DNA from: Imbricaverruca yamaguchii
Lineage: Eukaryota > Arthropoda > Thecostraca > Neoverrucidae
Reading direction: 5' to 3'
NCBI GenBank assembly: GCA_034440575.1
Contig: JAOTOL010001369.1
Span: 1 to 64,000 of the forward strand
DNA: 64,000 bases
In this document: positions 22,237 to 40,575 of the stretch, piece by piece
Layout of the letters: every line of letters starts with the position of its first letter
Position numbering within the stretch: the stretch's first letter is position 1
The notes under the pieces: model-generated
The model's database searches: none
Told to the model about the DNA's origin: nothing
The model's input: only the letters and a program-made list of their open reading frames with translations
Position numbers and translations under genes: made by a program

Positions 22237-22940
22237 CTCGGGTGACTCGCGCCTCAGGCGGGGCAGGCTGGCACATCCGACGGACGGCTACGCATCGCCT
22301 CGTCCGTACTGTCGCAGAGGTGCGGAGGTGCCGACGATTGTAGTGGCGACAGGCTCAGTTCTGGACTGCAACCTAGTGCTGCAGCAACAGCTTGGCAAGA
22401 GTTAAACTAACAGAAGTAAGTAAGAATTCACTCTGGAACAGGAAGTCAAAGAAGCACAATGCTGACCGTCTCTGAAAGCTGAGTTACCAACAGCGAGAGG
22501 AACTCAAACACAAGAGGAATTCATCTGGAGTGCCCGCTAGTGAGAAGCTTTTATTGGCCATTAAAACGTGTTGGCAATGGACTACACGATGTCGCTACAC
22601 GATACTGTACAAGACGTGCGCTTCGAGAAGTCCGTGGCTCCTACCCAATCCAAGTCATCACGCCACTCGTCAGTCATCTCGTACTCGTCACGACTCAAGG
22701 TGAGCAACGCTCTTTCACTTCGTACGAATAGCAGACAGCACATTCTGATAATAACGGATAACTACGTGAGCCAAATGGTAAAAATATCCACGTAGGGTAA
22801 GGAAGCGCCCTGTCGCCCGCCATTGCTATCCGTACAGATCACTGGCAATGCACGAAGGGATACAAATATAGATCATTGTCAATCATGTTGGCACCGACAA
22901 GGCTTAACATGCTATACACGAGCGTCATGTAAAATTTTCC
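22237..22940. other. No recognised feature
   Basis: Unique sequence between the 45-bp minisatellite and SINE S4. No exon is seen. Confidence 0.5.
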
Positions 22941-25157: not shown

Positions 25158-25358
25158 CTAGCGCGGGGAGGCCAGCCGACCGCGATCACGTGGCGGAGCA
25201 GTGAAGAGGAGGGCTTGTCCCCTCCGACACGGCTGCCGCCGCTGCGCGGCCCGTCGCCGCTGCTGTCGCTCTCGCTGGAGGATCCCGACGAGGTCAAGGC
25301 CGAACACAGCGACACCATGCGCGGGTCCAATCGCGTCGGCGATGCGGAGTTCTACGGG
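25158..25358 (+). CDS. Ninjurin, first coding exon (5' boundary uncertain)
   Basis: The frame that ends DAEFYG in phase 0 at a strong donor (TACGGG|gtgagt, GT at 25359) joins in frame to the conserved ninjurin exon at 28297. The frame is open from 25158, after a stop at 25155-25157. The only in-frame ATG is at 25317 in a good context (GACACCATGC). It gives a 14-residue start (MRGSNRVGDAEFYG) and total isoform lengths of about 138-150 residues, close to vertebrate ninjurins (about 140-150). Upstream in-frame sequence (SLEDPDEVKAEHSDT, preceded by Pro/Ser/Glu-rich residues) looks like a plausible acidic cytosolic N-terminus. An upstream coding exon joined near 25202 is therefore possible, although no pyrimidine tract supports an acceptor there. 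Confidence 0.62.
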
Positions 25359-25586
25359 GTGAGTGCCAAGTGCTGATTCAAGTGCTAGCGTGATATGATG
25401 TAGCTTCAAGTGCTAGCTCATGTCATGTTAGTCAATTAGCAGCTGGCATGACCTGCTCATGCTAGCTTCAGATAATGCCTCGGACGGCCGGAGCACTAGG
25501 ACTTTTCGGATTGAAGATCTCATGGATTGTGTTGTTTACCAGTCCTGTTAAAGAGGTCAGCCTTTCAGGCTACCATTGACAAAATA

Positions 25587-26425
25587 TTAACCCGTCCCGT
25601 CTCGGGGGGGTCTTCAACCGTCCCCCTCTGGTTTTTCGCGGATAGCGGACGAACGGCGCGCGGTAGCGCGCAAAAATTTGGCATACCTTTTCCCACACCA
25701 ATTTGACATGCTGATTCAAAAATTTTAGATCAGATCATGGAGGGTCAACGAATTAGTCTAGGTCAAGTGAGGTCATCTCCAAAAAAGTTCAACCAGTCGT
25801 CACGCTTTAACGGATCCAGATATGTTAATGAAACTTTCAGTGTTTGCTTATATTTATGGATGCAATAAAACGTACTAGTATAATTTTTCCTTTGATCGTT
25901 TTTGACTACATATAATTTTTGTGTATTTGCCAAATTGCAGTTCAGATAGAAGATTCTGGCTAAAGTAAGCATTTCATTATTAGGGCAACATGACTTCCAA
26001 CAACATTTCTTGGTTTGCTTTTCCAATTGGAAAATGAAAATTAAAGAAAACTTGAAAACTAGAAATTATTAAATGAAAAAAGAGCTTTAATTCTGGGGGC
26101 CAAAAAATTGGTGCCCTGGTCGATTTCGCCGTCATTTTCTTATTCCAAATATTTTTTTTTTCTCTTCATATATCCCAAAAATTAACACCCCAGAGCCAAA
26201 AACATAATGCAAGTCGTGAAAATCTAGCCAATCTACCCCCCTGGTAACGTCCCTTTTGTGGAAATTGATTTGGGGGATGGATCCCTGACCCTACTCGTCG
26301 AGCGCTTTCCGATGACACTTCTTTCATTTTCGTGCGATGCTTAGTTTGGATTTTAGAGGGGGGTCTTCAACCCCCCCCCCTGAGACAGGGTATGAGGATT
26401 TGACCGGGAAGACGGCGCGGGTTAA
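25587..26425 (+). mobile_element. F1 TTAA element (MITE), copy D
   Basis: Perfect TTAA on both edges: starts TTAACCCGTCCCGTCTCGGG and ends GAAGACGGCGCGGGTTAA. About 839 bp, in ninjurin intron 1, same orientation as copy C. Both hairpins are present and there is no coding frame. Confidence 0.82.
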
Positions 26426-26507
26426 CTCCGCTGCGTTAGTTTGCGGACACATTTTGAATGACCTGCTGTATAGCCCCGCCTCAAGTGTTGCAGCTCGCAG
26501 GGTACTG

Positions 26508-26990
26508 GGCTGATGCAGTTAGTCGCCGGATTAACCTACGTATGTATTTGGTCGCCGAATTTGCCCGCTGATTAGTTGGTCGCCGGATTAGCATGTTTAC
26601 TTATTTAGTCGGTACGGGCGCTAAATGACCTCGTAGCCGTTGGTTGGTTGGTTATTGGTTTTGCGACACAGCGACTATTCAGTCATGTGGCATCTCCAAT
26701 CTCTCACGCCGATTGGTCGCGGGCGAAGAGTAGCGACAGGTGAGACTCGAACCCACAAACTTTTGACTGTGAGACGAGAAACTTACCCCTAGGCTACTCG
26801 CCCCCTGACCTCGTAGTCAGCGCGCCCTTAAGCCAAAATAATAAATCAATATTTGGTCGGTAGATTAGCCTGCTGATGTAGCTGGTGACCAAATTAACCT
26901 GTTGATCTGTTTGGTCGCTGAATTAGGCTGCTGACACATTTGGTCGTCAGATTGGCCTGCTGATGTCTTTAGTCGCCGGACTAGCCTGGC
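26508..26990. repeat. Degenerate minisatellite, about 28-30-bp unit, split by a SINE
   Basis: Units of the type 'ggtcgccggattagcctgct' plus 'gatgtattt' occur before 26620 and after 26850. A SINE S2 insertion sits between them. Confidence 0.75.
26637..26805 (-). mobile_element. SINE S2, full copy with 11-bp target duplication
   Basis: The reverse complement begins GGGGGCGAGTAGCCTAGGGG (A box) with 'gtgggttcgagtctcacc' (B box), then the central domain 'gcgaccaatcggcgtgagag', ending in a TAACCAACC-type tail. It is flanked by TGACCTCGTAG at 26626-26636 and 26806-26816. It has interrupted a minisatellite. Confidence 0.88.
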
Positions 26991-26999
26991 AGTGCGTAA

Positions 27000-27855
27000 T
27001 TGCTGTTGCTTAACAACTCACCCACTATTATCATAAGCAGGGTCAGGCATAATCAGTGGGCAAGCACCATCCTTATTTCGCCATGTTGCTGTCTTCATGC
27101 GGAAAATTTGCGTGCGAGAAAACAAATATATTTCTTCCTGAGCCGGGTTCAGTTCATCTCACTGAACGAACACGTAATTCCATCTTGTCTTTCAATTTAC
27201 GCCGATTTCTGGTCAATCCAATGGAAGGTGCATAACTCTAAACTCCAACGAACTCTAACAAACCAGGCGATAACTGTAACTCTCACCAACTCTAACGAAC
27301 CAGGCGCTAGGCCGAAGCGATCACGTGACATTAGTTACGTAACCGGCGCGTGTCCACTGTGTGTGCGCCTTTGCTGATCGCGTGCAAGTACAAAATGTTG
27401 GGAACAACACCAGGCATGGGATGTTGTGTCGTTTCTGGAACATCGCCCTGGTAGCCGTGTTTAAGACTCCTGTTCCTGGACGAGTATGTCGATGTTTGTT
27501 TTTATTATATTTCAAGCAAAACGCAGCTTTGATTCCATATCGAAGATGCATTCTTCTTACATATAGTATGGTGGTAGGCGCACGATGAAAAACTGATTTT
27601 AGACTTCGAGCAAGTGAACGCTACTACTGAATTTTAACACAGCGCACAGAGTTGCAGCGACGTAACCCCGAACACCGGCTCTGCCAACATCTCACACTTC
27701 AGGCTGCATGGAAGCATCCCAGGTCAGTGGGCTCACTACAGCTCTTCAGCAAAACCCTGCATGCCTCTTGTGTCGGAGGTATCACCGAGCTACTCCCTTA
27801 AAGCCACGCGTCAGGTTATTTCCTGATGTCCAGTGCCAGAGGAGTGGCGTTGGCC
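27000..27855. other. No recognised feature (ninjurin intron 1)
   Basis: Unique sequence. A small 'aactctaac' tandem lies at about 27232-27300. No exon-like reading frame with splice sites is seen. Confidence 0.45.
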
Positions 27856-27879
27856 GTGGCTTGCTACACAGATGGCGGT

Positions 27880-28296
27880 GCCGCAGCCCGGCTGTAGCTG
27901 GGTCACGGCGTATGCCGCCCGTACTAAGTAGTGCCGTAGCCCGGTTGTATAGCTGGGTCACGGCGTGCACCGCCCGTAATGAGTGGTGCCGCCCGTAATG
28001 AGTGGTGCCGCCCGTAATGAGTGGTGCCGCCCGTAATGAGTGGTGCCGCCCGTAATGAGTGGTGCCGCCCGTAATGAGTGGTGCCGCCAGTAATGAGTGG
28101 TGCCGCCCGTAATGAGTGGTGCTGCAGCCCGGCTGAAGCCAGGTCACGGCGTGCACCGCCCATAATGAGCGGTGCCGTAGCCAGGTTGTAGCTGGGTCAC
28201 GGCGTGTACCGCCTGTCCTGAGTGGTGCTGTAGCCCGGCCGTGCCTGGGCCGAGGGGTGTGTCACCTGTCCTGATCGGCGCGCCATCTGTCGGCAG
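27880..28296 (+). repeat. Minisatellite, 19-bp core in a longer unit, running up to a splice acceptor
   Basis: About eight copies of 'gtaatgagtggtgccgccc' at 27975-28130 lie inside larger units of the type 'tagctgggtcacggcgtgca' plus 'ccgcccgt'. The last degraded units ('cacctgtcctgatcggcgcg') continue to the acceptor of ninjurin exon 2 at 28295-28296. Confidence 0.88.
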
Positions 28297-28473
28297 CGGA
28301 ACCGCCTGGACGCCAATCGGTACGCGACCAAGAAGACAATCGCGCAGGGCATGCTGGACGTGGCCCTGCTGACGGCCAACGCCTCGCAGCTGCGCTATGT
28401 CCTGCACGTGGGCGAGCAGCACGAGTTCTACACGCTCATGGTGACCCTCATCTCGCTCAGCATCGCACTGCAG
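28297..28473 (+). CDS. Ninjurin, conserved shared exon (amphipathic helices and first membrane segment)
   Basis: The exon runs from acceptor 'ctgtcggcag' to donor CAG|gtgagt, 177 bp, phase 0 on both sides. It reads RNRLDANRYATKKTIAQG and then MLDVALLTANASQLRYVL, followed by a hydrophobic start (YTLMVTLISLSIALQ). This is the ninjurin family signature: N-terminal amphipathic helices before the first membrane segment. Ninjurins are cell-surface adhesion proteins, and NINJ1 oligomerises to rupture the plasma membrane during lytic cell death. The KK pair and the Asp of MLD, at positions reported to matter for human NINJ1 oligomerisation (Lys45, Asp53), are conserved. The exon ends inside the first membrane segment, so it needs a downstream exon. 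Confidence 0.95.
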
Positions 28474-29285
28474 GTGAGTGGCAGCAGCGCAACACGGAGG
28501 CGCGGGGATGCTCGCGTTTGCGGTGCCTGTGTGTGTGTGTGTGGGGCAGGGTGGGGGTGGGGGGTGTATGCGTGTAAACATATAGACCGCACTGCTATTG
28601 CACTATCTGGCACGTCGGTATGTATGTGCCTACATCTTCAGGGAGCGTGCATGTCGGTCTGTTGGTTCGCACGTTTGCGGGGAGAGTTTCAGCAGGTGGC
28701 CCGAGGAATCGTCACCGACATTGCCATCGCGCTGTGATTTGTTGCGCAGCACAGAAATAGACGGGCGTCGTGAAATATATGCACGGCATATGCCTCATTT
28801 ATTGACACCTTGGCAACAGCTTAGTGCACGCGCTCGCTTTCAGGTTCTGAGAGAGCACGTTAAGTACTCAGCAGGGATATGATGAATAGAAAGCCGCTTC
28901 GGTGACCTGAGGCGAGTTCGTGCCTTCGGGGCGTGCCGCCGGACGGAAGAACTCACGTGAAGGTCAAATATCCATCAGCCAGGTGCCAAGGGCGCTTGCT
29001 AGTCAGCATTAATCCCGTGGCGCTACGAACGCTACCCAGTTGCTGCTACCGACCGGGTAGCAGCCGGCCGAGGACAAGCATCTCCGAGGTCAGATCAGAG
29101 GTCAGACGAAAGGTCTCCCACACTAGAAGCAAACGCACTGACCAATTGCGCCATCAGGATTGTTATTCAGTGAGTTAGTTGGCTTTCATACGTTTCTCGA
29201 CGGGATTACTGTTTACGCACATGCAAGGAATTTGCTTGGGTGGCAGATCGAGCCAGCACGATTCTTTACAACACTCATACCTGCA
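28474..29285. other. No recognised feature (ninjurin intron 2)
   Basis: Contains a short TG tract (28530-28545) and GC-rich unique sequence. The tRNA-like minus-strand block near 29130-29160 is too weak to call. Confidence 0.4.
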
Positions 29286-29289
29286 TTAC

Positions 29290-29395
29290 ACTCACAAATA
29301 CACCACTTATACCCGATTACGACCCACACCTGCACCGCTTGTACCCGCTTACCATCCACACCTGCACCACTTATACCGGCTTACAGTAAACTACA
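29290..29395. repeat. Tandem repeat, about 36-bp unit, 2.5-3 copies
   Basis: 'acccacacctgcaccgcttg' plus 'tacccgcttacc' recurs with small changes. Confidence 0.85.
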
Positions 29396-29399
29396 ACGG

Positions 29400-30009
29400 T
29401 TCATCCTTTACAATACGGATCAATGAACGAAAGGTTCTTCAATAAGGCATGCTGGTTACTTCCTGAAAGGAATTTTTGACACCGGTTGATAGGGAATAAG
29501 CGTTTTTCACTAAAATTTACGGTAAGTATAGCATATGCTCTTCATACTAGAAAACGTAGCATCATGAAATACTTTCCTTTGAACGCATTCTAACCGGTGT
29601 CATGACTATTGCCAATGAAAACACAACGGAAGAAAATGACTGCCTTGATTCAACATAACCGCGACTGGACTGGCGCTAACTATAGCATGATCCAAACAAA
29701 ATGTATGTGGAATGATAAAAGGAACGCGAAATCAACCAGAACCGCAAAACGTTTGGCTTATATGACCCATGTTGGCCATTGGCGGTACCATCGGAGCAGA
29801 AACGATGACGCACTTGGTGACGCACTTGTAACTGAAACGTCAGTTATAATTGGCTAATCGGCTAATTGGATAAAACAAAAGGTTATCACAGGAGGGGGTG
29901 GCAGTCCCGTAGTTGAAGCTGATCGGCAATATTGCTCACAGCGGTAACCTGCTCGCAAAACTTGACAAATGAAGACAACTGAATCGGTGACGTGGGTAAA
30001 GGAGATAGC
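29400..30009. other. No recognised feature (ninjurin intron 2)
   Basis: Unique sequence with no exon-like signals. Confidence 0.45.
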
Positions 30010-30960
30010 CCTCCCCTGGATGACTGGAGAGTGCCTTCCAGGCGGCCATCGTGAGAGGCCCTCAAGGACACGCAAGGACCCCTCAAGACGTCTGCTCAGG
30101 GGGTTCGTAATACCCCTGGTCCGATGTGTAGGGCCCCTGGACCGACGAAAGGGGCCCCGGTCTGACGGGGAGGGTCTGAGGATGGTGAAGAGGGCCCCGA
30201 ATTAACAGAGTACCCTCATGAAAATGCTGAGGGCCATTGACTGGTGTAACGTGAAGGGCTTCCCAGATCGATGGAGGGGGCCACGGATAGTTGGAATGAA
30301 CCTCGAGCTGACGGAAGAGGGACTGGAGCCAATTGAAGGGTCCCTGGGCCGGACACGCAGAGCCCCTAGGTCGGTTTTGGTTCATGTTCATGGAGGACTC
30401 AGAGCTGACAGCGGACCTCGTGCCGATAAAGAGACCCCCGAGATAACGAGACGATTCGGACCGAAGTAGAGGGTTCCCGGTGCTACCTACAGTGTATCAA
30501 GCACGTGGATGGTCATCGCTGTAAAAAGCAGTGGCGTTTCCAAGGGGCGAAGGGGTACCCGCCCCCTGGCGAGTCTGATTGGACCATCAAAGCGACCGCC
30601 CTGTGAGGCAGATATATAACCGACGAAAACTGTGAACACATCTACCAGCTTGTATGGAGATGGCCCCTGAGACCTGAAGATGTCTACCCTGCAAGACCAC
30701 CAGACGTCAAGGGCCGTGACGACAAGAATGGGTCCGCCCAAGAGCTGGAACGCCCATGTCAGCTGAAAATAGCAGTCTCTGCTTGAGTGAGCCTCTAACA
30801 GCTGATGAATCAATAGCACGCCTGAAGGTCCTCAGGCATAAATAGGCCCCTGGGGGCCAGAGAGGGCTGGGATGCTCTTCAGGTTTGAAACGGCCCCTGA
30901 GGTATGAACAGGACGCCCAGCGGATGGAGAGGGCCCATCTCAGATCTGAAATCTACCGAG
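30010..30960. repeat. Degenerate minisatellite of about 30-bp units
   Basis: 'gggcccctggaccgacgaaa'-type units (a G/C-rich 'gggcccc' core, then 'tgacgga' or 'tgaaga') recur every 25-35 bases for nearly 1 kb with heavy divergence. Open frames here follow the repeat and are not genes. Confidence 0.6.
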
Positions 30961-31059
30961 ATGGGAGTTAGAGAGGACTGGTGAGGAACACAGGACCATT
31001 GAGGACCATTGAGAGCCATGCATGCTGCCAAGGACTGGAAATGTCACTCACCATCACCT

Positions 31060-31195
31060 CAGCGGCGGCGGTCGCTCCTGTGGCGGCGGCCTCCTGAACT
31101 GCCACAGCCGTCCTGGCGGTGACAATCGTCCAAGTGGCCACAGCTGTCCTAGCAGTGACGACCGTCCAAGCGGCCACAGCTGTCTTAGTTGCATG
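31060..31195. repeat. Tandem repeat, about 40-bp unit, three copies
   Basis: 'gccacagctgtcctagcagt' plus 'gacgaccgtccaagcg' recurs three times with changes. Confidence 0.8.
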
Positions 31196-31474
31196 ATCAC
31201 AGCTGATCCGACAGCTGCGTTCGTTCCAGCTATGGCCAGAAAGACGGCCCAGCGATGGCTGTGATGACGGCCGCCACAGCGGCGCCAGCTGCTTCGCCTT
31301 TGACCCGAGCGACAACAGTTAAGTAAAACGAAAGAAAGTTATAATCGGCAAGATCCTGTGTATTGTTGGGCACCGCTGGTTAATCATGTTGCCAGTCCTT
31401 CCCCTGTCCCCAAATATTGCACTCATTTTCCCCACTGGAGTATCAGCCTCATTTTCAGAAAGCATGACTGTATT

Positions 31475-31560
31475 GAAAAGGCGCAAGAGTTTCAGCAAAT
31501 CCGTAGAGTTTCGGAAAATACTAAAGTTTCAGAAAATCCGTAGTGTTTCGGAAACGTGGA
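31475..31560. repeat. Short tandem repeat, about 18-bp unit
   Basis: 'gtttcggaaaatccgta'-type units repeated about five times. Confidence 0.75.
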
Positions 31561-32119
31561 GGTCCCTCGGTAGGTAGGAAGCCATTTTTAGGCGTTCGCC
31601 CCACTCTCCTGGACCAAATTCTCGCTACGCCACTGCATCGAATTCGGCACACAGTTATTGCAATCTGGTTGACTTTCGGGAGTTAAGGTCGTGTGATCTG
31701 ACTCCCAGATTTCCAACTAAATGACGACCTGAGCGCAAATTTGGATGACCATTCTCAGAGCTTATGGATAGCCAAGCTGTTACTGGTCACAAAACTGGTT
31801 GTTTTAGGTTCGGTTTGTTTATGTATAGTCAACTTGGTCCTTCGTGCGATTTATACGCCACACGGTGGTGGACTGTACTTCTCAGATAAACGTAATTCAC
31901 ATGGCCCGACTCTACCATTGAAATGTCAAAAAGATTGCTTCCCGCTACTGCCTGTTGTGCAACTTCGAAAGTCGTGTTAGTGCAGTCACCTGAACACCGT
32001 GGCATCGGGTAATATCGGATCACTACCCACAGCAGGGGCTAGACAGACAGTTTGTCGACGGTGCTGCCGCCTGGCGGGGGAACTGCCCTGCCATCTAACG
32101 GCCACGTGGTGGTTCGCAG
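31561..32119. other. No recognised feature before ninjurin exon 3A
   Basis: Unique intronic sequence ending at the 3A acceptor (AG 32118-32119). Pyrimidine support for this acceptor is modest. Confidence 0.4.
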
Positions 32120-32317
32120 GTGGTGATCGGCCTGTTGTCGCTAAGTTTGAATTTGCTGCGCGACTGTCGGCTGGACCGGGACGAGTACGCGCGCTCGGCG
32201 GTGGCCATCAACTACACCTCGCTGGCCGTCGTGTTTGGCATCATCACCACCAACGTGCTGATGTCGGCCTTCGACGTGCGCGACCTTACCGAACTGCCCC
32301 CCGTCGACGTTCCGTGA
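32120..32317 (+). CDS. Ninjurin alternative terminal exon 3A
   Basis: After acceptor 'gtggttcgcag' the exon reads in phase 0 VVIGLLSLSLNLL, completing the first membrane segment that starts in exon 2. A charged loop follows (RDCRLDRDEYARS), then a second hydrophobic segment (AINYTSLAVVFGIITTNVLM), and SAFDV with a short tail to TGA at 32315-32317. It has 65 codons. With exons 1 and 2 it makes a full ninjurin of about 138 residues from the ATG at 25317. The Gly at the fourth position matches one of two closely spaced glycines reported as needed for packing in human NINJ1 (Gly95). Exons 3B and 3C encode the same region. Confidence 0.9.
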   Translation: MVIGLLSLSLNLLRDCRLDRDEYARSAVAINYTSLAVVFGIITTNVLMSAFDVRDLTELPPVDVP

Positions 32318-32394
32318 ACCCGCCTTAGCACGACCACTGCGGAGGTCGGCAAAATGGGCCTTCCTGTCGATCAAGCCCAGACTGTTCGCCAGCG

Positions 32395-32581
32395 GGGACG
32401 GGTTGGGTGGCCGAGTGGTCAAGATGCTGAGCTCTGGGTACCAAAGGTCCCGGGTTTGACATCCGCACCATTCAGGACGGTTTCCAATCAAACGGCCCGC
32501 CGGCGAGACAGTGCGGGAGGCGCCGTTATCCGTGAATGTGCATGAGGTGCGTCGTGAACCGCAATATACAACCAATCAAAC
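32395..32581 (+). mobile_element. SINE S1, older copy
   Basis: A Ser/Leu-type tRNA head ('tgggtggccgagtggtcaag', B box 'cccgggtttgacat') and the S1 body ('gccggcgagacagtgcggga', 'atccgtgaatgtgcatgag'). More diverged than the copies at 33552 and 48876, and no clear target duplication. Confidence 0.8.
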
Positions 32582-32776
32582 GTGAGTCTGTCAGGGGTCT
32601 GGCAGCTGGCGTAGACGTATCGACAACGATCAGAAAGCTGAGTCAGCAGGAAAAGAACGAAACACATGGCTGTCGTGGCTATCGGCACAACTTGGAATGA
32701 GGGCGATAGGCACGTCACTCTCCTCAAGCTTCGTGGACTTCAACACTACGCCTGTGGGCACCTGGGAAAATCTACG

Positions 32777-32945
32777 CTGGGGGCGAGTAGCCTAGGAGTA
32801 AGCTGCTCGTCTCGCAATCGAAAGGTTGTGGGTTCGAGTCTCACCTGTCGCTACTCTTCGCCCGCGACCAATCGGCGTGAGAGATTGGCGACGCTACATG
32901 ACTCAACGGTCCATGTGTCGTAAAACCAGTAACGAACTAACTAAC
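32777..32945 (+). mobile_element. SINE S2, full copy with 11-bp target duplication
   Basis: Head GGGGGCGAGTAGCCTAGGAG with B box 'tgggttcgagtctcacc', the central domain 'gcgaccaatcggcgtgagag', and tail 'gtaacgaactaactaac'. Flanked by GAAAATCTACG at 32766-32776 and 32946-32956, so the insertion is fairly recent. Confidence 0.9.
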
Positions 32946-33189
32946 GAAAATCTACGTAGAAACCCATTATCCATTCGCACCTCCATCGAAAACCGAGACG
33001 ACGCCAAGCCACTGCGCCGCCACCAAGCCTCGCTATGCCACTGCCCGTTCAGACGAATCAAGACGCTCTGCATTATCATTATACTTTGGGAACGGCTTCA
33101 TCTTAATATAATATTGGACAACCGCGCTGCTCTAGGAGAACATTGTCTGCCATGACCGGAGAAGTCATGCGGCTCGCTTAAACATACAA

Positions 33190-33195
33190 AATAAA
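33190..33195 (+). promoter_or_regulatory. Possible poly(A) signal downstream of exon 3A
   Basis: AATAAA about 870 bases after the 3A stop and after two SINEs. It is the first canonical signal I see on the plus strand after 3A, but its use is speculative. Confidence 0.2.
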
Positions 33196-33551
33196 TGCCA
33201 AGCGTTCTACAAAACATAATCAATGCGCAGCGTTACGACCAGGAATGCAGCCAGGAAACTTCTACGACAGGTGATAGGCGAATGCTGATGGCTGGGATAA
33301 CGGCTGGCGCCTGACAGCTTTCAAAGGAAAAAGCCAAAACAATTGGCCTCGTGGGAAGCAACCGCCTATGCACCACCCATTCCTGTGGCTGCGACCCACA
33401 GGACCCGTGCTCTTACTGACTACACCAGAAATGTCCAACCGATGTCCTGATGTTTATTATTTTTGACGGGAATACACACGCAATCAGTTATAGTTTCGGT
33501 ATCTGTGCTGTGTTTGTCAGCATCACACTCAGTACTTGAACTATGTGTAGA

Positions 33552-33733
33552 GGGGCGGGGATGGCCGAGTGGTTAAGGTGTCGGGCTATGGGTACCAAAG
33601 GTCCCGGGTTCGACTCTAGCGCCACTCAGGACATATCCCAATCCCGCGGACCACCGGCGAAACAGTGTGGGCGGCGCCATTAGCCGTGAATGTGCATAAA
33701 GTGTGTCGTGAACCAACCAATAAACAAACAAAC
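33552..33733 (+). mobile_element. SINE S1, 182 bp, with 14-bp target duplication
   Basis: The head GGGCGGGGATGGCCGAGTGG includes the A box; 'cccgggttcgactct' is the B box. The body is 'gaaacagtgtgggcggcgcc', and it ends in an (ACAA)n-like tail. Flanked by GAACTATGTGTAGA (33538-33551) and GAACTATGTGCAGA (33734-33747). Confidence 0.92.
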
Positions 33734-33749
33734 GAACTATGTGCAGAAA

Positions 33750-35500
33750 GAGCAGGCATCAAGTTTTATCGATAGCTAGGTCAATATAGAACGAATAACA
33801 TCCGCCACTTACCATCGACAGTCACCTGCAACATTTTGAGGAAGCTAACAATTAGTCATAAACAAATACAACTCGCTAAAACAACTAGAACAGTGGAACG
33901 GCAAACTTTTATGCGTATAGCGCACGGTAACTGGTACGGTGTTAAGGCTCCCTGGTACCTTCCAGATAGCTATTGCACGTCTCAAGCTGAGACGCACGCA
34001 CGTAGCATTTTGAACACCTACAGAAACTCGAATTCGAATTACTTTGTATGTAACAAACCCCTCGTTGTATCTACTTTAATCCTGTTTAAGACTTCCGTTC
34101 ATCTCCACGAACCTTTGAGCCACGATGCTAGCAGTAACATAACAACAGCAGTATATTGGTAGCTTTATGATTGTCAACACCGTGGATAAATTTCTCGTGA
34201 AGATGGGGAACTCTAGACCGGACTACGTTGAGCACAGCGAGCGGCTTGGTGCATCCAATGTAATTCTAGTTAGGGTTTCTGCCAAAGTTTGAACATGCTA
34301 CATGCATGTGTGCACCTCAGGTTCAAAAGTGCAATAGCTATCAGATGGTCGAAAAGTACGATATTTCACCATTACATACACATCCATATAAACATATCAG
34401 AGACATTTGACAGTAGCCATCAGGCACGTTTCGTTACGTTTTACTGCATATCAGGCATTGATTGCTTCTTTTTGTGTTTTCAAATTAACTCATCGTTTAC
34501 TTTGCGTTTTCATTCCGTGGGAAAATATAATGACCGATTAGTAATTTCCTACTTCGGTCCAATATCAAACATTGTCAACCCATACAATGAAAATTGTAGC
34601 GACATATCAAGATGCATATTTCTGCCCAGGGCCGTGAGAAGTAATGATGAACGCTGAGGTTGTTTTGAACTTAGGACCGAGGGTCGACTAGGCATGAGGT
34701 CCGGAATTCTAAACAACCAAGTTTTGTAAACATTACATTCGTGATTAGGGTTGGACGGTTTTTCCACCATATGGAGCCAAAGGTGTGTTGAATCTTGGCC
34801 TATGTTCTATCCGTTTACATGTAAGGTTACACGTATTATCGATTGCAATTTGTGTATCCTTCTTTAATTCATGATGGTTAATTCATGGCCTAGACTTTCC
34901 ACGGTCGATTTTCAGCGGTAACCGTCAGCTTACCCAAATTTGATAATTTTGGAAATTCATAACAAAAACAATTTGTGTCAAATACCTTGATGAGACTGTG
35001 GTGAACATGATTCAGTCTGAAGGAAGGATCAATTCCGATTCCATCCGTGCCATTAAACGCACCCAAATGTCTGATTAACTGTGGTTATTTATTCAATGAA
35101 ACTGGCTTAACTCCTACACTAGATCAGCTTACCTCACATGCTGGATCCGCCGACTACCAATGGGCTATAAGCATGGCTTTAAAATATGGAAACACACACA
35201 TCAGCAAACACCGGAAACTACGAACAATTTATCGGGTCCGTTACGAAGCCGGACTAGAATAGGACAGAACGCGCGGCTAATATACTAGGACAGAACCAGC
35301 TAACTGGGAACTGAGCTTCCATGAGACACGATGAAGCATGCGTTGGAATGCAGTCAGCTGCTGCATGGCTCTGCTGATTTATTATTTTGCTGCACCCTCT
35401 TCGATTGCCCTATCTTTATGCACCTGATTCCCTGCAACACTATTCTTACCTTATGTTTGTATAAGCCAGGTAAGACGTCGATGTGAAGAGAATAATCATA
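33750..35500. other. No recognised feature (ninjurin intron)
   Basis: About 1.7 kb of AT-rich unique sequence. I see no further ninjurin-like exon and no other gene. Confidence 0.45.
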
Positions 35501-35504
35501 GTCC

Positions 35505-36678
35505 TAATCCCACAGTCCGTCTGTCAGTGTTACCATCCTGACAGTCCGTCTGTCAGTGTTACCATCCTGACAGTCCGTCTGTCAGTGTTACCATCCTGAC
35601 AGTCCGTCTGTCAGTGCTACCATCCTGACAGTCCGTGTGTCAGTGTTACCATCCTGACAGTCCGTCTGTCAGTGTTACCATCCTGACAGCCCGTCTGTCG
35701 ATCAGTGTTGCCATCTTTACAGCCCGTCTGTAGATCACCGGTTGATAATATCCTGACAGTCCGTTTGCAGGCCAGTGTTACCACCCTCACAGCCCGTATA
35801 CAGTCAGGTGTTGCCATCCTCACAGCCCGTCTACAGTCAGGTGTTGCCATCCTCGAGGTCAATTTGATGGCTAGGTTGTCACCATCCCCACAGTCCGTCC
35901 TAGGTCAGAGTTTTACCATCCGTCAGTCTTTCGGTAGGCCAGAGTGCCACCATTCTCACAGCCCGTCTGTAGACCATAGTGTGCCCTTCTGCAGGCCAGA
36001 GTGCTACCATCCCCACATCCATTAAAACAAATTTAATCCCAGGTTGAGTGGTATTATGAACCAGTGACCTATTGCTAAGCAGAACTCGTTGCGTGAATCC
36101 TGACCCCACCACCCGATCCGTGACTTTTGGGCATTTCTAGGTCGGAGTGTCCGTTTGACCCTCCCTCCCTCGAAGTCCGTTTGACGGTCAGAGTTTTATC
36201 ATCAGCACAACCCCTTTGCAGGCTTCTCTCCCATGACCCTCCAGCATAGTCGGTCAGTGTGTTGTCATCGTCAGAGTCCTTCCGTCAGTCGCCATAGTAT
36301 TGTCATCCTCACAGCCTGTCTGTAGCCGATCTGTGGCCGACCTGTGGGCTTCCGTCCCATAGTCATTCCATCAGTCAGAATGTCACTATCCTCACAGTCT
36401 CGTCCGTCAGTGAGATAGCTACCATCCTTACAGTCCGTCCCCCAGTTAGTGTTGCCAGTCTCGCAGCCTGCTTGTATCTGTAGCCCGCCTGTAGGCTCCT
36501 GTCCCATGGCCCGTCCATCAGTCTAGCGTTACCTCCCTCACAGTCCGTTCCTCAGTCAGTGTTGTCAGCCTCACAGGCCGCCTGCAGCCCGTCTGTATGT
36601 TCCTGCCCCGTCAGAGCGTCACCTGCCTCGTTGCTCGTCTGTCGGTGTCGCCCTCCTCACCGTCCATCTGTCGGTCAG
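35505..36678 (+). repeat. Minisatellite of about 29-32-bp units ending exactly at the acceptor of ninjurin exon 3B
   Basis: The first eight units are nearly identical ('ctgacagtccgtctgtcagt' plus 'gttaccatc', 35515-35710). Later units diverge ('catcctcacagcccgtctgt'). The final unit 'ccgtccatctgtcggtcag' supplies the AG at 36677-36678 used by exon 3B. An S4 SINE tail interrupts the array at 36043-36125. Confidence 0.9.
36043..36125 (-). mobile_element. SINE S4 tail fragment
   Basis: The reverse complement has 'tcgggtggtggggtcaggat' and 'gttctgcttagcaatag', homologous to 23161-23260 of the full S4 copy. Confidence 0.7.
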
Positions 36679-36870
36679 AGTGTCGAGACCGTCATCAACA
36701 TCGTGCTGGCCGTGCTGGACGCACGCGACACGGACTACCTGCTCTGTCGGGTCCGCACCGCGCTCAACTACACCGCCCTGGCTCTGGCCTGGACCACTGT
36801 GTTCGTGAACACCGTCTGGACCGGCTTCGGCTACGACGTCACCGTCTCCGTAGCAGGCCCACAACGAGCT
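36679..36870 (+). CDS. Ninjurin alternative terminal exon 3B (3' end uncertain)
   Basis: Phase-0 exon after 'ctgtcggtcag'. It reads SVETVINIVLAVLDARDTDY, then a loop, then a second membrane segment (ALNYTALALAWTTVFVNTVW) and TGFGYDVTVSVAG. It resembles 3A most closely (AINYTSLA against ALNYTALA). It lacks the glycine found in 3A and 3C and has a Glu inside the first membrane half. The frame stays open to a stop at 37693-37695, running through a GGAGCC repeat that would add a long Ser-Arg-rich tail. The repeat has no stop in any frame, so this openness is not evidence of coding. The exon may end earlier through splicing. It could also be a decaying copy. Confidence 0.75.
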
Positions 36871-36879
36871 GAAGCCGTG

Positions 36880-37430
<551 letters not shown>

Positions 37431-37562
37431 TCGCAGCCGGGACAGAGTGAGGTGCCGCTCCTGTCTGGGATCGGCGGGGACTCAGCCTTCCCGTCTGCAA
37501 ATCGTGACCCACAAAGCAGCCGATGAACAGGAAGATAAAGCGCGGGGGATGTCATCTGCAAG

Positions 37563-37676
37563 GCAGTTGCAGAGTCGAGAGGGAGAGAGCTACGGTGAAC
37601 TTTGCCGTAGCCAGCGTGAGTTGCAGAGACGAGAGGGAGAGAGCTACGGTGAACTTTGCCGAAGCCAGCCAGCATA
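37563..37676 (+). repeat. 54-bp direct duplication
   Basis: 'gttgcagag' plus 'gagagggagagagctacggt' plus 'gaactttgccg' occurs twice. 54 is a multiple of three, and the copies read in the frame open from exon 3B (REGESYGELCRSQ twice). A GTGAGT donor-like site lies at 37616. Confidence 0.88.
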
Positions 37677-37869
37677 CCACGGCCGACGTGTCTGAGTATC
37701 GGCGACCATCACACCACACGGCAACGGCCGCTAGGCTCCGATGCACGCTCAGACCGTCAGCGGGACGGCAATGTGTGCACCGCTGCAGCACCATCGTCAG
37801 CTCACATATGCAGCTGCAGGGTGATTCGCCACGCTTGCCTCGCCGGTGGCCACTTCGATGCGTGCTCGG

Positions 37870-37950
37870 ATGAGTGTTACGCCTGTCGGAGTTTCAAGCC
37901 TGTCGGGCATCAGTTTTCGGAGTTTTAAGCCTGTCGGGCATCAGTTTTAT
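37870..37950. repeat. 33-bp direct duplication
   Basis: 'cggagtttcaagcctgtcgg' plus 'gcatcagttt' occurs twice in succession. Confidence 0.85.
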
Positions 37951-38205
37951 CCTCGTGCAGATCGTAGCAATGCGTGTTCACTGCCCAGGTTAAATGAACC
38001 CTGGTTGACAGCCCACGTGCAAGGATGTCGAATGGTGTGGGGGTGGGGGTGGGGGTGAATTAATGCACCAGGTGCCCAGTTTCACCTGTCGTACCCAGTT
38101 TCACCTGTCAGTGCAGCTAGACGCAAGGTTGCTGCAGCGATGTTCCCGAGAACTGTGCGACTAGTTCTGAGATGTTTCCTTGTGAAAGATGTCGTGTGAC
38201 TACAA

Positions 38206-38240
38206 ATGCAAATGCAAATGCAAATGCAGGCACAAATGCA
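38206..38240. repeat. AAATGC hexamer tandem with octamer motifs
   Basis: Four AAATGC units plus a variant. The overlaps create several ATGCAAAT octamers, the POU/Oct binding consensus. Confidence 0.85.
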
Positions 38241-39324
38241 ACATACATCCGTCGAACGTGTGCTACTGGCACACTATGGGTGACAACGGCTCTCATGCGA
38301 TATGCAATCTGCCAAATGCTATTTAGATTTTCGCGCCTGCATTTTGATATGTCTACTTTCTAATACAGAAGTGAAAAGGCGATGGACACAATCTTGAGGG
38401 GAGTTATCATAATAAGCAAGCCCGAACATGCTATCAGGTGCGAAATACATGACTTGTTAGCGTCAGGCCGTCGTTAGGAATGATAGCCCGACGCCGACAC
38501 GTTGAGAATGTTGACACCGATACAGCAGTGCTGGACTTGATCACCACAATCTTCAAATATGCTGGCCAACATGCTGTACCACATTTGATGGAAACTTCTG
38601 TCCGTTTTTTGCGACACAGCCCCATACAACCTTGAGCAATGCATAAACACAATCTCTTAGCTCAAGCATGAACTGCTAAGTGCTGTAACTACCAAACACA
38701 TATGAACGACCGCTCTGATTGCGCTTATATGACGTCTGGTGCTAAGAGAATGTAAGTAATGTACAAAAGTACCAAGAATCAAGTTGTGCATCAAGAAATG
38801 AACACGGTCTGACATATGTATGAGTGACATCATGCCATCAAGATAGTCCCGGAAGCAAGCAACGACTCGCTGAATTATCACGATGGACAATTGTGGCTGT
38901 GTTAGAACGTTCCAAGTATATTTTGTCTGTGATTCACACACTTTTCCATGCACACTCGCGGAACATGGGCACATTGGCATAAATGAGTAACATGCAGGTT
39001 TTCACCACTGCCGATATCGCATGAGGATACGCCACGCAATGCGATTGATCGGTGTTAATACCTGCGGCTTTGTCCCGCCAAATCATCATATAGAGCACAA
39101 GACCCCAGTCTCGATACGCTTCACCTTGCGCGGGTGCCAGCCTCGTACTAACCGTCCTTGCAGACCCTGTGCGATGGTGCATGCGTCTAGTCGCTGTCCA
39201 CCGGACGGCAATGTTGTCGACGGTCCGCAGTCGACGCCTCCTTGCGCGGGCTAGCTCTGCCTCCGGTCCTCGCCGCGGCTGTCCTGACGTCGGTCCGGCC
39301 TCACATCGGCACGTCCTGTTTCAG
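38241..39324. other. No recognised feature before ninjurin exon 3C
   Basis: Unique intronic sequence that becomes GC-rich over the last 150 bases and ends in a strong acceptor. Confidence 0.45.
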
Positions 39325-39558
39325 ATCCTGGTGGGCATCCTGCTGATGATACTCGGGGCGCTCAACATCAATGAATCGTCCCCGTCCCAGCAAGCCGCAG
39401 ACATCATCAACGATGTCAGCGTCGTGCTGGTCTTCGTGATAACGCTGCTCAATGTCGTGATCGCCGCCTTCGGTATCGAGAACACTCGGCTGCTGTCTGT
39501 GCCGCCCACCGCAGCCCCGCTGACGTCGGCGCAGCTGTACTGGAGGGACATCAAGTGA
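39325..39558 (+). CDS. Ninjurin alternative terminal exon 3C
   Basis: This is the best acceptor of the three (cacgtcctgtttcag). The phase-0 frame reads ILVGILLMILGALNINESSP, then a loop, then IINDVSVVLVFVITLLNVVI-AAFGIEN, a tail with PPTAAPLTSAQLYWRDIK, and TGA at 39556-39558. It has 77 codons. It is closest to vertebrate ninjurins: joining exon 2 gives LQ-ILVGILL (vertebrates LQIGVGVLL), and NVVIAAFGIEN parallels the conserved N-I-F-I-T-A-F-G stretch. Combined with exons 1 and 2 the protein would be about 150 residues. Probably the ancestral terminal exon, with 3A and 3B derived. Confidence 0.94.
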   Translation: MLVGILLMILGALNINESSPSQQAADIINDVSVVLVFVITLLNVVIAAFGIENTRLLSVPPTAAPLTSAQLYWRDIK

Positions 39559-40010
39559 CTCGGTGCTCGTGGGAAGGACGAGCGCAGTGGACGCGATGAG
39601 CTGACACGACATTTTTGTTGCCTGCAAAACGTAATGCCAGCTATGCGCCGTCAGTTTACGACATCGAACATCGGGCTCGGAGCAAATCGATGTGTTATTT
39701 AATCATAGTTGTTGTGACATACGATGCTGCTCGGTCCACATAAGAGCAGCACATTCGTTGACGGATCAATGATTCTGGTGGGCACTTGTCCTGCTAACGA
39801 TCTCGCATCAAATCTACTGACACGTTGAGCGAACATCAGCAGGACAGCCACTGGCCAGCCAAAACAAAACAAAGAAACCTCAGCGACACTTCAAATGCAT
39901 GATTCGTTTTCTCTTTCTCAATGTTGAGGGATTCCTTCCGAGGATGACCCCCTCCCATCCACTCTCCCCTTGCTGTCCCCCTGCACGTTTCTCACGCGAC
40001 CAGGCGTGCC
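39559..40010. other. Candidate 3' UTR of exon 3C, no further feature
   Basis: I see no AATAAA within about 1 kb of the stop, so the end of the transcript cannot be placed. Confidence 0.3.
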
Positions 40011-40024
40011 TCAACCCTCTACTG

Positions 40025-40575
40025 ACTCGCTGAGCTGACCTTAACAAGCCAGCTGACCAGCTGACCAGCTGACCAAGCGTGCCTCAACCCTCTACTGACT
40101 CGCTGAGCTGACCTTAACAAGCCAGCTGACCAGCTGACAGTTGACCAGCTGACCAAGCGTGCCTCAGCTCTCTACTGACTCGCTGAGCTGACCTCAACAA
40201 TCCAGCTGACCAGCTGACCTGCTGACAGCTGACCAGCTGACCAGCTGACCAGATGATCAGCTGACCAGCTGACCAGCTGACCAGCTGACCAGCTGACCAG
40301 CTGACAGTTGACCAGCTGACCAAGCGTGCCTCAGCTCTCTACTGACTCGCTGAGCTGACCTCAACAATCCAGCTGACCAGCTGACCTGCTGACAGCTGAC
40401 CAGCTGACCAGCTGACCAGCTGACCAGCTGACCAGCTGACCAGCTGACCAGCTGACCAGCTGACCTGCTGACAACTGACCAGCTGACCTGCTGACAGCTG
40501 ACCAGCTGACCAGCTGACGAGCTGACCAGCTGACCTGCTGACAGATGACCAGCTGACCAGCTGACTAAGCGTGCC
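40025..40575. repeat. (GACCAGCT)n minisatellite with higher-order units
   Basis: An 8-bp unit GACCAGCT, with TGACCTGC and TGACAGT variants, is organised in larger blocks that start 'caagcgtgcctca'. Nearly every unit junction creates CAGCTG, an E-box. Minus-strand frames read QLVSWSAG repeats and are not genes. Confidence 0.95.

What the first reader, a model, noticed from the sequence alone, without database searches (positions are those of the whole stretch)
25317..39558. Ninjurin gene with three candidate alternative last exons that each replace half of the first membrane segment, the loop and the second membrane segment
One conserved 5' exon (28297-28473) ends in phase 0 inside the first transmembrane helix. 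Downstream, three separate exons (32120, 36679, 39325) begin in phase 0 and encode the same part of the domain with very different sequences. Only one copy of the upstream exon is present, so separate tandem genes are less likely than alternative last exons. In NINJ1 the first transmembrane helix packs the oligomer that breaks the membrane. Swapping its second half would tune or abolish rupture and adhesion. This is a domain-level splice switch in a death/adhesion protein.
Basis: partly seen in the sequence, partly recalled or inferred. Interest (0 to 1): 0.9.

Follow-up and report, generated by a model that had tools for sequence, protein, structure and literature searches.

The report
Ninjurin gene with three swappable tails
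A barnacle-like gene for ninjurin, a membrane protein linked to cell bursting and cell adhesion, has one shared core exon followed by three alternative last exons, and relatives in other barnacles and in insects carry similar sets of tails, so splicing may choose between different versions of this protein.

Summary
One ninjurin core exon (28297-28473) is followed by three phase-0 exons (32120, 36679, 39325), each encoding the second half of transmembrane helix 1, the loop and helix 2. Alternative last exons are the best reading: in two barnacles and many insects, database isoforms identical over the last 60 residues before the junction carry different tails. Among listed rows, 18 of 184 named species show all three tail types and 81 of 184 at least two. 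A and B tails each form one supported group holding barnacle and insect rows; C groups with human NINJ1/NINJ2. That barnacle B equals insect B is favoured, not proven. Of eight NINJ1 mutations reported to reduce both lysis and filament formation, four fall in the shared and four in the swapped exon. That the switch tunes membrane rupture is inference; residues 47 and 93 look unlike lytic NINJ1. Isoforms are annotated in databases, but no paper describing tail swapping was found in the searches listed. No RNA evidence from this genome was available.

The parts
22577..22699 (+). alternative first coding exon (41 codons, ends phase 0 at AAG|GTGAGC)
   Evidence: ATG-open frame to a GTGAGC donor; aligns to the N-terminus of Amphibalanus isoforms P0011/P0335 (12 of 34 identical; 0 of 5000 shuffles reach the score; tblastn only E 0.016)
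25227..25358 (+). other upstream coding exon (5' end not determined; frame open from 25158; donor GGG|GTGAGT, phase 0)
Evidence: aligns to the N-terminus of Amphibalanus isoforms P0008/P0115 (16 of 43 identical).
28297..28473 (+). common core exon: amphipathic helices 1-2 and first half of transmembrane helix 1, ending at the residue that aligns with NINJ1 Q91
   Evidence: Pfam Ninjurin 2.7e-26; 52 of 59 and 54 of 59 residues identical to Amphibalanus and Pollicipes; only copy in the window
32120..32317 (+). alternative last exon A (65 codons and stop)
   Evidence: 38 of 53 and 45 of 53 identical to A tails of Amphibalanus and Pollicipes; A group 99/91
36679..36837 (+). alternative last exon B, conserved 53-residue core; frame stays open to 37695
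   Evidence: 22 of 53 and 24 of 53 identical to B tails of Amphibalanus and Pollicipes; B group 97/85; stop position
39325..39558 (+). alternative last exon C (77 codons and stop), the NINJ1/NINJ2-like tail
   Evidence: Pfam 8.8e-8 alone; 35 of 52 identical to C tails of both barnacles; groups with human NINJ1/2 tails

Best explanation
One ninjurin gene of a thoracican-barnacle-like genome has at least two alternative upstream coding exons and is spliced through a single core exon to one of three alternative last exons. The shared part gives the amphipathic helices 1-2 (the polymerisation arm) and the first half of transmembrane helix 1; the last exon supplies the rest of helix 1, the cytosolic loop, helix 2 and the C-terminus. 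Shown: the exons, their phases, their homology, and, in database proteins of relatives, one 5' part paired with different tails. Inferred: that this genome uses all three tails; that choice is set by competition between splice sites and 3'-end formation; and that tail choice sets packing of the membrane hairpin, with C the canonical tail, A an alternative that keeps the packing pair G95/F127, and B a tail changed at those places that is likely non-lytic or interfering. Splicing part about 0.9; functional part about 0.4.
For: Pollicipes P0007 (A), P0341 (B) and P0127 (C) are identical over the last 60 residues before the junction; so are Amphibalanus P0008 (A) and P0115 (C), and P0011 (A) and P0335 (B), all four listed with the same longest-contig length 1491875. 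Six groups made only of unnamed-source proteins show the same for A and C; in one of them P0009 (A) and P0128 (C) come from contigs of 955 and 1620 bases, so probably cDNA, though their DNA was not seen. In all, 66 groups have identical last 60 residues and different tail class; some mix species, and a fused model counts as a class of its own. 18 of 184 named species show A, B and C and 81 of 184 at least two, among listed rows. Tails are more alike between species (A 72-85%, B 42-45%, C 67%) than within the window (22-31%). Of eight NINJ1 mutations reported to reduce both lysis and filament formation, K45Q, D53A, I84F and Q91A fall in the shared exon and G95L, T123L, I134F and A138L in the swapped one (PMC10307626 passages). 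B tails differ there: residue 133 is D in 95 of 100 and 136 is K in 96 of 100, while C keeps F127 and N133 in 114 of 114.
Against: No RNA reads for this genome. Many of the relatives' isoforms carry predicted-isoform names (isoform Xn). 3A has a weak pyrimidine tract; 3B has no AATAAA/ATTAAA between its stop and 3C and a very long C-terminal frame. The window's own B tail lacks the D133/K136 pair of insect B tails (N and W). Core residue 47 is isoleucine (by eye) and residue 93 is V, V and L; A47L made NINJ1 non-functional in HEK cells and NINJ2 has V at both (PMC10307626 passages), so lysis by any isoform is uncertain.
Confidence: 0.85

Rival explanations
1. Only tail C (and perhaps A) is used; 3B in this genome is a decaying relic exon.
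For: 3B is the most divergent tail, its frame runs into a 6-base repeat, it lacks a canonical poly(A) hexamer before 3C, and its helix-2 residues differ from insect B tails.
Against: The 53-residue core is open in frame behind an acceptor with 0.65 pyrimidines and aligns at 42-45% to B tails of both other barnacles, where B isoforms are annotated. Of the two other frames over this stretch one has a stop and one is open, so openness alone is weak evidence.
Confidence: 0.15
2. Tandem ninjurin genes, each with its own core exon, the extra core exons lying outside the window or lost from the assembly.
For: Amphibalanus has further ninjurin proteins with other N-termini and A-like tails (P0006, contig 1650444; P0012, contig 523513), so separate copies may exist in barnacles.
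Against: One core exon in 64 kb on either strand; no N in the window; relatives show identical last 60 residues with different tails.
Confidence: 0.04
3. Barnacle B is not the same exon as insect B but an independent duplicate that diverged fast.
For: Order differs: A-B-C here and in the fused Amphibalanus model P0010, A-C-B read by eye in fused insect models. The barnacle B branch is long (2.51) and two of its rows have odd letter make-up; AU tests do not reject barnacle B with barnacle C (p 0.257) or with all A (p 0.129). The insect-B profile scores window 3C (34.3) above window 3B (18.2) (30.3 and 12.6 in the six-frame scan).
Against: The free tree puts barnacle B with insect B at 97/85; a duplicate of barnacle A is rejected (p 0.025); the insect-B profile is window 3B's best match (18.2 against 9.9 for A and 6.6 for C; best of 298 scored shuffles 5.0).
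Confidence: 0.35

Closest known systems
NINJ1 / NINJ2 of vertebrates (PF04923; PDB 8CQR, 8SZA, 8SZB, 9BIA)
   Same: Same domain and helix plan; joined proteins score 102-133 bits to Pfam Ninjurin; the joined C form matches full NINJ2 and NINJ1 chains (4.3e-27 to 7.5e-24); models of an Amphibalanus A form and a Pollicipes B form find NINJ2/NINJ1 and NINJ1 structures first.
   Different: Humans have two separate genes, NINJ1 and NINJ2 (PMC12547243 passages); here one gene offers three membrane hairpins on one arm. Vertebrate exon structure was not examined.
Insect and crustacean ninjurin genes annotated with several isoforms (e.g. 'ninjurin C isoform', 'ninjurin-1/2 isoform Xn')
   Same: The same tail classes on one core part; P0244 (B tail) carries a UniRef label GEO10808p1, Drosophila melanogaster, which I recall as a cDNA-clone name.
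   Different: Insect order A-C-B, barnacle A-B-C (by eye); barnacle B very divergent; a cockroach model holds a further tail and Penaeus japonicus two A-like tails on one 5' part.
Alternative terminal exons that share features of mutually exclusive exons (discussed in PMC3228551, passages)
   Same: Homologous terminal exons of similar length and the same phase.
   Different: That text does not name ninjurin; here the swap cuts through the middle of a transmembrane helix that builds a polymer.

Membership tests
Ninjurin family (PF04923) | Pfam Ninjurin match over the full profile | tested here: met
   Joined A 1-102, B 1-100, C 1-102 of 102, all above the 26-bit cut-off
Ninjurin family (PF04923) | Each tail on its own recognised as ninjurin | tested here: inconclusive
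   C yes (32.4 bits), A below cut-off (14.3 bits), B no hit; all three recognised by tail profiles
NINJ1-type lytic ninjurin | Polymerisation salt bridge K45-D53 | tested here: met
   Both residues present in the common exon translation, read by eye against the alignment; role from PMC10307626 passages
NINJ1-type lytic ninjurin | Small residues at 47 and 93 (named in PMC10307626 as possible reasons why NINJ2 is inactive) | tested here: not met
   I47 in the common exon (by eye); V, V, L at 93 in A, B, C
NINJ1-type lytic ninjurin | No Gln at the position of NINJ1 F117 (the Gln that distorts NINJ2 filaments, PMC12547243 passages) | tested here: met
   A, A, I in A, B, C (by eye on the alignment)
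NINJ1-type lytic ninjurin | G95 and F127 packing pair | tested here: inconclusive
   Present in A and C; T and W in B
NINJ1-type lytic ninjurin | Causes plasma membrane rupture | not testable with these tools
   Needs a cell assay
Alternative-last-exon gene | Several terminal exons, each with acceptor, same phase and stop | tested here: met
   the stop of B is far downstream
Alternative-last-exon gene | Transcripts joining one upstream exon to each | tested here: inconclusive
   Seen as database proteins in relatives; no reads for this genome
Alternative-last-exon gene | Poly(A) signal after each terminal exon | tested here: inconclusive
   AATAAA at 33190 after A and 41858 after C (2.3 kb away); none of the two canonical hexamers between B and C

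The most novel reading that the evidence does not exclude
An ancient splice switch shared by crustaceans and insects makes one ninjurin gene produce subunits that share the polymerising arm but carry different membrane hairpins, so that isoforms co-assemble and the B tail (charged or altered at positions 95, 127, 133, 136 and 138) acts as a built-in poison subunit that keeps filaments from rupturing the membrane until splicing shifts to A or C.
Probability: 0.2. Interest if true: 0.85.

Novelty: new variant of a known kind. Interest (0 to 1): 0.6.

Why it matters
NINJ1 actively breaks the plasma membrane in lytic death of mammalian cells, while the role of arthropod ninjurins is unsettled. A conserved choice between three membrane hairpins on one arm would mean that rupture, adhesion or another membrane function is selected by splicing, and it supplies natural chimeras that separate the roles of the arm and the hairpin. 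It can be tested in Drosophila: the listed Drosophila proteins include A, B and C tails.

Tried and rejected
Tandem genes: rejected on the single core exon. Chance open frames: rejected by matching tails in two barnacles. A further tail or second core copy elsewhere in the window: nothing convincing; a weak A-like stretch at 2610-2660 (11.7 bits; 44% over 18 residues) was left. Own-genome search for other ninjurin genes: not completed. Insect-B identity of barnacle B: favoured but not settled (the test of barnacle B with all C did not finish). Chelicerates, myriapods and non-arthropods: not reached; only the best 120 rows of each of three protein searches (of 901, 876 and 2600 hits; only the 7987 candidates sharing most words were scored) were listed. 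Papers: 'ninjurin' with 'alternative splicing' and 'isoform' (19 papers; titles and abstract starts seen, none on this); NijA/NijB/NijC (9 listed of 10); ninjurin with barnacle (0); ninjurin, splice, insect (9, listing); CG14394, which I recall as NijC (4, listing). Two further searches were uninformative because none of the 20 papers listed in each holds the word ninjurin (970 and 1,564 papers matched on other terms). Searches were for NINJ1/NINJ2 structure papers. PMC11664169, PMC3460944, PMC3228551, PMC10307626 and PMC12547243 were seen as passages only; no passage seen describes tail swapping in ninjurin.
Full report
What is there. The window is animal DNA (inferred from its spliced gene); its ninjurin exons are closest to proteins of thoracican barnacles (Amphibalanus amphitrite, Pollicipes pollicipes), so I call it barnacle-like; the species is not known. 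The core exon at 28297-28473 encodes 59 residues with a Pfam Ninjurin match to profile positions 1-54. It ends CTGCAG|GTGAGT, in phase 0, at the glutamine that aligns with NINJ1 Q91 (alignment; numbering counted by me). Three downstream exons begin in phase 0 after CAG: 3A 32120-32317, 3B from 36679, 3C 39325-39558.

Are the tails real. Joined to the core exon they raise the Pfam score from 92 bits to 115 (A), 102 (B) and 133 (C). 3A and 3C hit barnacle counterparts with E down to 2.8e-24 and 9.4e-25, 3B down to 4.8e-12. Each tail resembles its counterpart in another barnacle more than its neighbours in the window: A 38 and 45 of 53, B 22 and 24 of 53, C 35 and 35 of 52 identical, against 14 of 52 (A-B), 16 of 51 (A-C) and 11 of 50 (B-C) inside the window. 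That is what separately kept exons look like. Weak sides: the 3A acceptor is poor in pyrimidines; the 3B frame continues for 338 codons to 37695 through an AGCCGG-type repeat, and no AATAAA or ATTAAA lies between it and 3C.

One gene or several. A six-frame scan of both strands with a core-exon profile gives 124.9 bits at 28303-28473 and at most 5.2 elsewhere. In Pollicipes three database isoforms, P0007, P0341 and P0127, have identical last 60 residues before the junction and then tails A, B and C; in Amphibalanus the same is seen for P0008 (A) with P0115 (C), and for P0011 (A) with P0335 (B). Six groups made only of unnamed-source proteins show A and C tails on one 5' part. In one, P0009 and P0128 come from contigs of 955 and 1620 bases and are by eye identical over all 86 residues before the junction; with such short contigs they are probably cDNA, though I could not see their DNA. 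In all, 66 groups of proteins have identical last 60 residues and different tail class; some groups mix species, and fused models count as a class of their own.

The 5' side also varies. Amphibalanus isoforms of this kind begin in two ways. Both have counterparts here: 22577-22699 for P0011/P0335 (12 of 34 identical, 0 of 5000 shuffles as good; tblastn alone E 0.016) and an exon ending at 25358 for P0008/P0115 (16 of 43). A review (PMC12547243, passages) reports that exchanging the disordered N-terminus of NINJ2 for that of NINJ1 conferred rupture activity, so 5' choice may matter as well as tail choice.

How old. Tail profiles class listed proteins as A, B or C; 18 of 184 named species show all three, 81 of 184 at least two. 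Fused models are included, and a few calls inside them are crude (an A remnant read as B in P0110, a C remnant as A in P0112). The counts are limited by listing: each of three searches showed only its best 120 of 901, 876 and 2600 hits, and names are those of cluster representatives. The named species are insects, a springtail and crustaceans. An unrooted tree of 72 tails (66 database rows picked by me; 59 columns, few for so many rows) puts A on one side of a branch (99/91), B including the barnacle B tails (97/85), and C together with human NINJ1/NINJ2 and a cockroach piece (97/84). Profiles made without crustaceans assign window 3A to A (77.1 bits), 3B to B (18.2 against 9.9 and 6.6) and 3C to C (71.2). 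Against B identity: the barnacle B branch is long, constraint tests do not reject barnacle B with barnacle C (p 0.257) or with all A (p 0.129), though they do reject it with barnacle A (p 0.025), the insect B profile scores window 3C above window 3B, and exon order differs (A-B-C here and in P0010; by eye A-C-B in fused insect models P0095, P0110, P0111, P0112 and P0120). The array is not fixed: cockroach P0129 holds a further C-like tail, and Penaeus japonicus P0076 and P0118 carry two different A-like tails on one 5' part.

What the swap would do. In NINJ1 the helices are 44-55, 58-74, 79-103 and 114-138, and K45Q, D53A, I84F, Q91A, G95L, T123L, I134F and A138L reduced or abolished lysis and reduced filaments (PMC10307626, passages). 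The first four positions fall in the core exon, the last four in the swapped exon; F127-G95, the highest-scoring co-evolving pair, is wholly in the swapped exon. Across the tail rows (A 107, B 100, C 114): residue 95 is G in 97, 67 and 112; residue 127 is F in 93, 31 and 114; residue 133 is N in 104 (A) and 114 (C) but D in 95 of B; 136 is K in 96 of B. So insect B tails put an acidic and a basic residue into helix 2. The window's B tail has T95, W127, N133, W136 and G138 and no charged residue at 120-139, so it departs from NINJ1 in another way. Models of a Pollicipes B form and an Amphibalanus A form (mean pLDDT 67.9 and 69.0, so modest) are helical, and their first PDB matches are NINJ1 (9BIA, E 1.8e-3) and NINJ2/NINJ1 (8SZB 2.8e-5, 9BIA 3.4e-5). 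The arm with K45 and D53 is in the shared exon, so isoforms could in principle mix in one polymer; the same paper reports dominant-negative and gain effects of some mutants in mixtures.

Caution on function. The Nature paper suggests A47 and G93 as reasons why NINJ2, with V at both, cannot replace NINJ1. Here residue 47 is I (by eye) and 93 is V, V and L. On the other side, none of the tails carries the Gln at position 117 that distorts NINJ2 filaments (A, A and I by eye; for the claim). The human NINJ2 tail scores 41.7 and the NINJ1 tail 34.2 bits against the insect C profile. Lytic activity of this gene is therefore open. Drosophila NijA is reported to induce non-apoptotic death (title and passages of PMC3460944), but in nothing I saw was an isoform of this gene tested.

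Verdict. It is not a barnacle oddity: matching tail sets occur in many insects and some crustaceans, present in databases as isoform models, and I did not find them described in the searches listed under Tried and rejected. The functional switch is a good hypothesis, not a result.

Noticed in passing
22577-22699: Alternative first coding exon of the same gene, matching a second kind of N-terminus in Amphibalanus isoforms.
   Followed up: yes
26730-26805 and 32780-32880: By eye, two related tRNA-like stretches in opposite orientation between the coding exons, suggesting a tRNA-derived SINE; ARAGORN calls no tRNA in the window.
   Followed up: partly
36922-37415: AGCCGG-type repeat that stays in frame with exon 3B and would encode a long low-complexity tail.
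   Followed up: partly
39998-40565: Nested tandem repeats with CCAGCTGA units inside longer 73-167 base units just downstream of exon 3C.
   Followed up: no
2610-2660: Weak A-tail-like stretch (11.7 bits); probably chance.
   Followed up: partly
P0129 (Diploptera punctata): Fused gene model with C, B and a further C-like ninjurin tail, so arrays may hold other or more tails.
   Followed up: partly
   Followed up: no
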